Part shown: one piece after another, positions 62,621 through 63,138 of the stretch
Numbering within the stretch: position 1 is the first letter of the stretch
How the letters are laid out: each line of letters opens with the position of its first letter
Notes under the pieces: model-generated
What the model was told of the DNA's origin: nothing
What the model saw: only the letters and a program-made list of their open reading frames with translations
Database searches by the model: none
Translations under genes and position numbers: made by a program
NCBI RefSeq assembly: GCF_009674675.1
Contig: NZ_WKJC01000001.1
Coordinates: forward strand, 496,001 to 560,000
DNA from: Kangiella sp. HZ709
GTDB lineage: Bacteria; Pseudomonadota; Gammaproteobacteria; Enterobacterales; Kangiellaceae
Direction: 5' to 3'
DNA length: 64,000 nt

Positions 62621-62803
62621 CTACATATAGCTTTTCATCCCTGTATTATGAAATTGCTCCCTGCCTTCTCGCCAGCCCCCAAGCCATTCTTCTTTGGCGT
62701 TAATTTCTTCATAAGGACACACTTCTTTTGATTGACCATGCAAGGCAGCATTGAATCCTTTTGAGTGAGCTCTTTGAAGCTTATCTCTTTTTTGTCTTTT
62801 CAT
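62621..62803 (-). CDS. rmf: Ribosome modulation factor
   Basis: A 60-residue basic protein that pairs 70S ribosomes into inactive 100S dimers in stationary phase. It starts MKRQKRDKLQRAHSKGF and has the conserved SKEVCPY and EEWLGGWREGRE, closely following E. coli Rmf. AAGAGGAAA precedes the ATG. A strong terminator-like hairpin ends 48 bases before the start codon on the same strand, with no gene in between, so expression may involve attenuation or readthrough. Confidence 0.97.
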   Translation of the reverse strand: MKRQKRDKLQRAHSKGFNAALHGQSKEVCPYEEINAKEEWLGGWREGREQFHNTGMKSYM

Positions 62804-62850
62804 GTTGTTTCCTCTTATTGTTGACGAGAAGTAAAACTTAAAATTTTTGC

Positions 62851-62888
62851 AAAAAAAACCGACTGCCTCTTACGAGACAATCGGTTTT
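62851..62888 (-). terminator. Terminator-like hairpin in the upstream region of rmf
   Basis: On the minus strand a 15-bp uninterrupted stem (two G-U pairs) closes a GUAA tetraloop (62870-62873) and is followed by eight T residues. On the plus strand the two wobbles become C-A mismatches, so the element is built for the minus strand. There is no minus-strand gene upstream of it in the spacer: it either attenuates rmf or ends a small RNA. Confidence 0.8.
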
Positions 62889-63109
62889 ATTTAATCTGTT
62901 TGACTAAGTCTTACCATAGATAATCATTTATTCTTGCTTACCTACACCTTACTATTTCTAGCTCCTTTATCAAGTAAAATCGGTTATTAATCGGTCGAAA
63001 TATAAACAATCAATAAGTTATCAGTTACAAATAAATCAACCAGTAAATAGTTGAACTAGTAATGAACACTAAACTGGTCTTACCTGAATTGATTTGATAA
63101 ACCATCAAG

Positions 63110-63138
63110 TTTACGTTTGCGTAAAGGTAAGGTATATT
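63110..63138 (+). promoter_or_regulatory. liuR promoter with LiuR-type inverted repeat
   Basis: TTTACG-TTTG-CGTAAA (63110-63125) has perfect 6-bp arms. Its left arm is a -35 element, with TATATT (63133-63138) 17 bases downstream. The site lies about 50 bases before the liuR ATG, which suits autorepression by the MerR-family product. Confidence 0.65.

What the first reader, a model, noticed from the sequence alone, without database searches (positions are those of the whole stretch)
62851..62888. Terminator-like 15-bp hairpin with GUAA loop immediately upstream of rmf
Seen directly: on the minus strand a 15-bp stem with a GNRA-type tetraloop and a T8 tail, 48 bases before the rmf start codon, with no minus-strand gene upstream of it in the spacer. 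The remaining 47 bases have no good promoter. Either rmf carries a 5' leader whose terminator must be overcome, or a small RNA ends here. A structured RNA upstream of rmf is known in Pseudomonas (Rfam rmf motif); this element looks different and may be an analogue. Stringent or growth-phase control of ribosome hibernation by attenuation would be new.
Basis: partly seen in the sequence, partly recalled or inferred. Interest (0 to 1): 0.62.

Follow-up and report, generated by a model that had tools for sequence, protein, structure and literature searches.

The report
Conserved terminator in the rmf leader
In the marine bacterium Kangiella, the gene for the protein that puts ribosomes to sleep sits behind a conserved transcription stop signal, so the cell may switch the gene on by letting RNA polymerase run past that stop, perhaps when a ribosome on a short leader reading frame gets in the way.

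Summary
Minus strand 62888-62851 forms a 15-bp hairpin with a GUAA loop and a U tract (four of the eight U's also belong to the stem), 47 nt before rmf; the next gene is divergent (MerR). It is not chance: 20 of 20 Kangiella genomes searched carry a covarying hairpin plus a run of at least 7 T here, and 0 of 86 divergent gene starts sampled in the same genome have one. Of 18 other Kangiellaceae loci, one has a weak AT-rich hairpin. Conserved promoter-like blocks lie upstream of the hairpin; nothing is conserved between it and the ribosome-binding site. So rmf most likely has a leader of about 90 nt with an internal intrinsic terminator. No competing antiterminator was found. A short leader ORF ends at the stem foot in 16 of 20 genomes, and a long-range helix can close in read-through RNA. 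Best mechanism: pyrBI/pyrE-like antitermination by a leader ribosome. Termination and control are inferred; there are no RNA data. Weak start signals of the ORF (none in the window) count against it. Rivals: an mRNA-stabilising hairpin, a small RNA, an unregulated throttle, an insulator. No match to Rfam rmf (RF01755). New variant of a known kind.

The parts
62621..62803 (-). rmf, ribosome modulation factor, 60 aa
   Evidence: PF04957, 70.7 bits
62855..62888 (-). terminator hairpin: stem 62888-62874 with 62869-62855, loop 62873-62870
   Evidence: present in 20 of 20 genus genomes, covariation
62851..62858 (-). U tract of eight, four of them also in the stem
   Evidence: six T columns invariant and a seventh nearly so in 20 rows
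62891..62917 (-). candidate leader ORF MVRLSQTD, stop codon ends 2 nt before the stem
   Evidence: no Shine-Dalgarno sequence here
62904..62915 (-). 5' strand of the long-range helix P1 (12 bp)
   Evidence: L003 is the window's own locus
62830..62841 (-). 3' strand of P1, between U tract and ribosome-binding site
62946..62951 (-). predicted -10 TAAGGT; transcription start predicted near 62939
   Evidence: conserved island in clade A, hexamers read by eye; not listed by the scan; not tested by experiment
62968..62973 (-). predicted -35 TTGATA, 16 nt from the -10
   Evidence: as above
63008..63020 (-). conserved block TAACTTATTGATT upstream of the predicted promoter; resembles an IHF site by a recalled consensus
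   Evidence: clade A identity 0.85; the IHF consensus comes from no call
62810..62816 (-). rmf ribosome-binding site AAGAGGA
   Evidence: conserved island; -6.0 kcal/mol with the rRNA tail

Best explanation
This is an intrinsic terminator inside the 5' leader of rmf. Transcription starts about 50 nt upstream of the hairpin in the window's clade (predicted near 62939). Most RNA polymerases stop at the U tract and release a leader RNA of about 90 nt; rmf is made by read-through. INFERRED mechanism: a ribosome translating a short leader ORF, whose stop codon lies at the foot of the stem, covers the base of the 5' arm and keeps the hairpin from closing, so polymerase runs on into rmf. By default a ribosome does not catch up over so short a distance and the terminator wins; a slow or paused polymerase would favour read-through. 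The read-through RNA can then close a long-range helix around the hairpin, which may protect the mRNA. Shown by comparison: the element, its conservation and covariation, its place downstream of the conserved promoter-like blocks, the ORF pattern, and P1 in most of clades A and C. Not shown: termination, promoter activity, translation of the ORF, and any regulation.
For: Element in 20 of 20 genus genomes with covariation. 0 of 86 divergent gene starts carry such a terminator. Islands of conservation upstream of it: clade C -35-like 0.96 and -10-like 0.88, against 0.37 between terminator and ribosome-binding site; clade A 0.78 and 0.78 against 0.29 (7 of 8 and 5 of 6 members used, clade B not scored). 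Leader ORF ending at -6 to +3 of the stem foot in 16 of 20 genomes, shuffled leaders 0.04 to 0.23 each; chosen frame open in 19 of 19, other frames 0 and 8 of 19. No antiterminator: leader against 5' arm, Fisher 18.7 on 40 df. In E. coli, moving a stop codon to 5 bp from a terminator cut termination from about 90% to below 10%, and terminators in the first 100 bp of a coding region still work well (PMC4824070, abstract and passages).
Against: The ORF has weak start signals: mean -1.8 kcal/mol against -6.0 for rmf and -0.8 for other ATGs; the window's own ORF -0.7. Only the Q-L-K codons of clade C look coding; the codon-position test over codons 2-13 gives p 0.11. L008 has no comparable ATG ORF, and in L005 and L007 the ORF runs through the hairpin. 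The ATGs were chosen by eye. The window's predicted promoter matches the sigma70 consensus in only 8 of 12 bases (my count) and the scan did not list it. Related genomes are not independent. Hairpins at rmf in other families sit at the predicted start of the mRNA, which fits a stability role.
Confidence: 0.4

Rival explanations
1. The hairpin is an mRNA-stabilising, and with its U-rich tail perhaps translation-enhancing, element near the 5' end of rmf mRNA; termination is weak or incidental, and rmf starts at or just before the hairpin foot.
For: In 10 of 20 loci looked at from other families, chosen because they or relatives have such hairpins, a sigma70-like promoter (8-9 of 12) ends 0-2 nt before the foot of a hairpin next to the rmf ribosome-binding site (no background rate computed). 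Clade B has ATGACA-N16-TAGAAT in a like place (read by eye). E. coli rmf mRNA is long-lived, about 24 min (PMC8778775, passage).
Against: In clades A and C the conserved promoter-like islands lie further upstream. The run of at least 7 T is kept in all 20 genus rows, while L205, L206 and L207 of other families have broken or short T runs.
Confidence: 0.2
2. A separate small RNA of about 90 nt ends at this terminator and acts in trans; rmf read-through or an own rmf promoter is secondary.
For: Size, promoter-like block and T-rich end fit. In clade A the segment ATGGTAAGACTTAA is more conserved (0.71) than its surroundings.
Against: The leader body is poorly conserved in clade C (0.49). No Rfam small RNA family reaches its gathering score in the window. 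No conserved promoter island between terminator and rmf. Targets were not searched.
Confidence: 0.15
3. The terminator is a fixed throttle: a constant small fraction reads through and nothing regulates it.
For: No antiterminator found; leader ORF start signals are weak.
Against: The ORF pattern at the stem foot in three clades would be accidental; a weaker promoter would do the same with less.
Confidence: 0.15
4. The terminator insulates rmf from transcription coming from the divergent side, and rmf has its own promoter in the 44-131 nt after the U tract.
For: In clade C that spacer is long enough for a promoter.
Against: Spacer identity only 0.37 (clade C) and 0.29 (clade A); no promoter listed there in the window; as little as 44 nt in L014 and L015.
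Confidence: 0.1

Closest known systems
E. coli pyrBI (and, recalled, pyrE) attenuators: a ribosome close behind polymerase blocks the terminator hairpin
   Same: Leader ORF reaching the terminator, no competing antiterminator found. Tight coupling across the pyrBI leader peptide prevents the terminator (PMC5021804, passages).
   Different: Different gene, much shorter ORF with weak start signals, no known polymerase pause, no shown regulation.
Rfam rmf motif RF01755 (Pseudomonas)
   Same: RNA element upstream of rmf (PMC2864571, passage).
   Different: No match here at E <= 10. The passage mentions no terminator.
Leader ORF plus terminator sensors of translation stress, such as the Listeria case mentioned in PMC8297930 (passages)
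   Same: A short ORF before a leader terminator.
   Different: Those are described as responses to antibiotics by ribosome stalling; no stalling motif or signal was identified here.
E. coli rmf regulation
   Same: Same gene; promoter control by ppGpp, CRP and other factors (PMC8778775, passages).
   Different: The passages I read mention no leader terminator.

Membership tests
intrinsic (Rho-independent) terminator | stable hairpin followed directly by a U tract | tested here: met
intrinsic (Rho-independent) terminator | polymerase release at the U tract | not testable with these tools
   needs transcription assay or 3'-end mapping
pyrBI/pyrE-type coupled attenuator | leader ORF that reaches the terminator | tested here: met
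   16 of 20 stop at the foot, 3 more run into or through the hairpin
pyrBI/pyrE-type coupled attenuator | the leader ORF is translated | tested here: inconclusive
   frame open, weak start signals, little codon constraint
pyrBI/pyrE-type coupled attenuator | read-through varies with a signal | not testable with these tools
   no RNA data
trp/his-type attenuator | alternative antiterminator pairing with the terminator 5' arm | tested here: not met
   Fisher 18.7 on 40 df
Rfam rmf RF01755 | match to the covariance model | tested here: not met
   absent at E <= 10 in the region; own genome none at E <= 10
Hfq-type small RNA | conserved pairing segment and an independent transcript | tested here: inconclusive
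   one segment conserved in clade A only; transcript and Hfq binding not testable

The most novel reading that the evidence does not exclude
Ribosome hibernation in Kangiella is set by ribosome-coupled transcription attenuation: the state of a ribosome on a tiny leader ORF decides whether the gene for ribosome modulation factor is transcribed, a direct loop from translation status to ribosome shutdown.
Probability: 0.3. Interest if true: 0.75.

Novelty: new variant of a known kind. Interest (0 to 1): 0.55.

Why it matters
As far as the passages I read go, rmf control in E. coli is described at the promoter and by mRNA lifetime (PMC8778775). A conserved terminator between promoter and rmf would add a control point that reads the transcription-translation machinery itself, and it is cheap to test with reporters and 3'-end mapping. 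Nine searches of the open PMC library listed no report of a leader terminator at rmf; this is judged from titles, beginnings of abstracts and passages, three of the listings were capped (46, 58, 59), and subscription papers are mostly not held.

Tried and rejected
Rfam membership: no family at gathering score in the window; the 12 matches at E <= 10 in the region are all far below gathering scores. Antiterminator against the 5' arm and leader pairing with the rmf ribosome-binding site: no excess. Bidirectional terminator: set aside by eye because the plus-strand T run is broken. Relic of an upstream co-directional gene: of 109 outgroup loci 67 have a terminator within 300 nt of rmf, and in 65 of these the nearest upstream ORF is co-directional (recount); but in Kangiella the neighbour is divergent, 15 family loci with a divergent neighbour have none, and the element covaries, so rejected. 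Leader ORF as a conserved peptide: only Q-L-K in clade C looks coding (6 of 7 species compared); clade A and B peptides differ. A special role of the GNRA loop: the loop varies. In one search the hairpin of L008 was missed because 160 nt were scanned; one search used 260 nt and found it. In one search the row L012 was misaligned, so P1 was judged instead. RF01755 across the order gave nothing and had no positive control, so it shows nothing about absence. A sigmaE-like reading of the clade C promoter (GTGAAC...TCWAA) rests on a recalled consensus and was not tested. Two order loci (L090, L093) were dropped because no rmf start was recognised, and L176 was left out as a duplicate of a family locus (L028).

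Full report
OBSERVATION. The hairpin is present as described, with one correction: four of the eight T's also form the lower stem. The rmf call holds (PF04957), it is the only copy found in the genome, and the upstream gene is a divergent MerR regulator (the name LiuR-like is recalled, not tested).

CHANCE. A uniform detector found a stem-loop with a T run upstream of rmf in 20 of 20 genus genomes; the T run ends 44 to 131 nt before the start codon. On the 20-row alignment (18 distinct rows) the stem shows 33 both-side changes in 8 of 15 pairs. 0 of 500 shuffles reach the number of both-side cells, the paired percentage or the covariation score, 4 of 500 reach the number of both-side pairs, and the number of further pair types is not raised. 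As a control I scanned the window plus 400 kb of the same genome: 0 of 86 divergent gene starts had a terminator pointing at the gene, while 22 of 56 convergent gene ends had one. Genes there were simple ORFs of 90 aa or more, so rmf itself was not counted. In the other genera of the family all 18 main rmf loci were checked and one (L045) had a weak AT-rich hairpin. Of 109 outgroup loci 67 have a terminator within 300 nt of rmf; in 65 of these the nearest upstream ORF is co-directional, in one (L139) none was found, and in one (L159) it is a divergent ORF of 75 codons.

ANATOMY. I sorted the genus by eye into clades A (6 genomes, with the window), B (5) and C (8), with L008 apart. Alignments within clades show conserved islands. 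Clade C, 7 of 8 members: GTGAACTTTTACT (identity 0.96), a variable spacer (0.46), CTCWAAA..GGTGTAA (0.88), the P1 5' strand (0.81), a variable leader (0.49), the terminator (0.86), the U tract with the P1 3' strand (0.85), a variable spacer (0.37) and the ribosome-binding site (0.89). Clade A, 5 of 6 members: TAACTTATTGATTGT (0.85), TTGNNN-N16-TANNGT (0.78 each, spacer 0.35), ATGGTAAGACTTAA (0.71), a variable stretch (0.22), the terminator (0.90), the U tract (1.00), a variable spacer (0.29) and the ribosome-binding site (0.83). By conservation the rmf promoter lies upstream of the terminator. This is a prediction; no start is mapped, and the simple scan did not list it.

LEADER ORF. In 16 of 20 genomes an ATG ORF of at least 7 codons ends within -6 to +3 nt of the stem foot; shuffled leaders do so at 0.04 to 0.23 per genome. 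In L005 and L007 the ORF from the homologous ATG runs through the hairpin, and in L019 it ends 12 nt inside it. L008 has only a 9-codon GTG ORF ending at the foot and an ATG ORF starting 7 nt before it. The chosen frame has no earlier stop in 19 of 19 genomes, against 0 and 8 of 19 for the other two frames; the ATGs were chosen by eye, which inflates this, and relatives are not independent. In clade C only the Q-L-K codons vary in a coding manner (26 synonymous against 12 other differences); the codon-position test over codons 2-13 is not significant, p 0.11. Start signals are weak, in the window absent. The ORF is a serious but unproven part.

LONG-RANGE HELIX. A segment before the hairpin pairs with the segment after the U tract. 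In 12 of the 14 genomes of clades A and C (not L005, L011) the best contiguous helix has 8 to 16 bp at similar places, and in 10 of the 14 it is stronger than with any partner strand from the other groups. Inside a clade, partners of other species often pair as well or better, so species-specific pairing is not shown there. The shuffle test summed over 20 genomes gives chi2 84 on 40 df, but only 6 of 20 reach p <= 0.05 alone. Clade B does not support it. Because its 3' strand is transcribed after the U tract, it cannot decide termination; it may shape or protect the read-through mRNA.

MECHANISM. No antiterminator was found. Moving a stop codon to 5 bp from a terminator cut termination in E. 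coli from about 90% to below 10%, more than 27 nt were needed for full termination, and terminators in the first 100 bp of a coding region work well because ribosomes lag (PMC4824070, abstract and passages). Tight coupling across the pyrBI leader prevents its terminator (PMC5021804, passages). I therefore favour default termination, relieved when a leader ribosome reaches the stem foot in time. Each step from termination to regulation is inferred.

RIVAL FROM OTHER FAMILIES. In 10 of 20 loci from other families, picked because they or relatives have such hairpins, a sigma70-like promoter (8 or 9 of 12 matches) ends 0 to 2 nt before the foot of a hairpin that directly precedes the rmf ribosome-binding site. 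There the hairpin would be the 5' end of the mRNA, which suggests mRNA stability. In Kangiella the unbroken T run and the upstream islands argue for a terminator, but a stability role is not excluded.

KNOWN SYSTEMS. The Pseudomonas rmf motif (PMC2864571, passage) does not match here. P. aeruginosa 3'-end mapping (PMC8297930, passages) discusses leader attenuation for other genes; the main text holds neither 'hibernation' nor 'PA3049' and the listing shows no 'rmf'; its supplements were not seen. Nine literature searches listed no report of a leader terminator at rmf.

Noticed in passing
L022, L023, L024, L025, L027, L031 (another genus of the family), about 35-325 nt upstream of rmf: A different structured rmf leader: a 13-pair consensus helix GUGGAUGURAGG / CCUURCAUCCGCAC with an invariant GAACGAGC inside, little covariation yet; none of the five of these loci other than what was scanned (all six were) has an Rfam match at E <= 0.5. 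A candidate new leader RNA.
   Followed up: partly
L087, L088, L095, L098, L201-L204, L207, L209 (other families), 20-75 nt upstream of rmf: A terminator-like hairpin just before the rmf ribosome-binding site with a sigma70-like -10 ending 0-2 nt before its foot, so the mRNA would begin with the hairpin.
   Followed up: partly
window 63107-63127 (+): Palindrome AAGTTTACGTTTGCGTAAAGG next to the divergent MerR gene, kept in most genus loci printed; looks like its operator (recalled, not tested).
   Followed up: no
G037:C9:811877-811996 and G038:C2:187429-187554 (family genus g6): A second, weaker PF04957 match in each of these two genomes, the one in G037 inside an open frame of 1107 aa.
   Followed up: no
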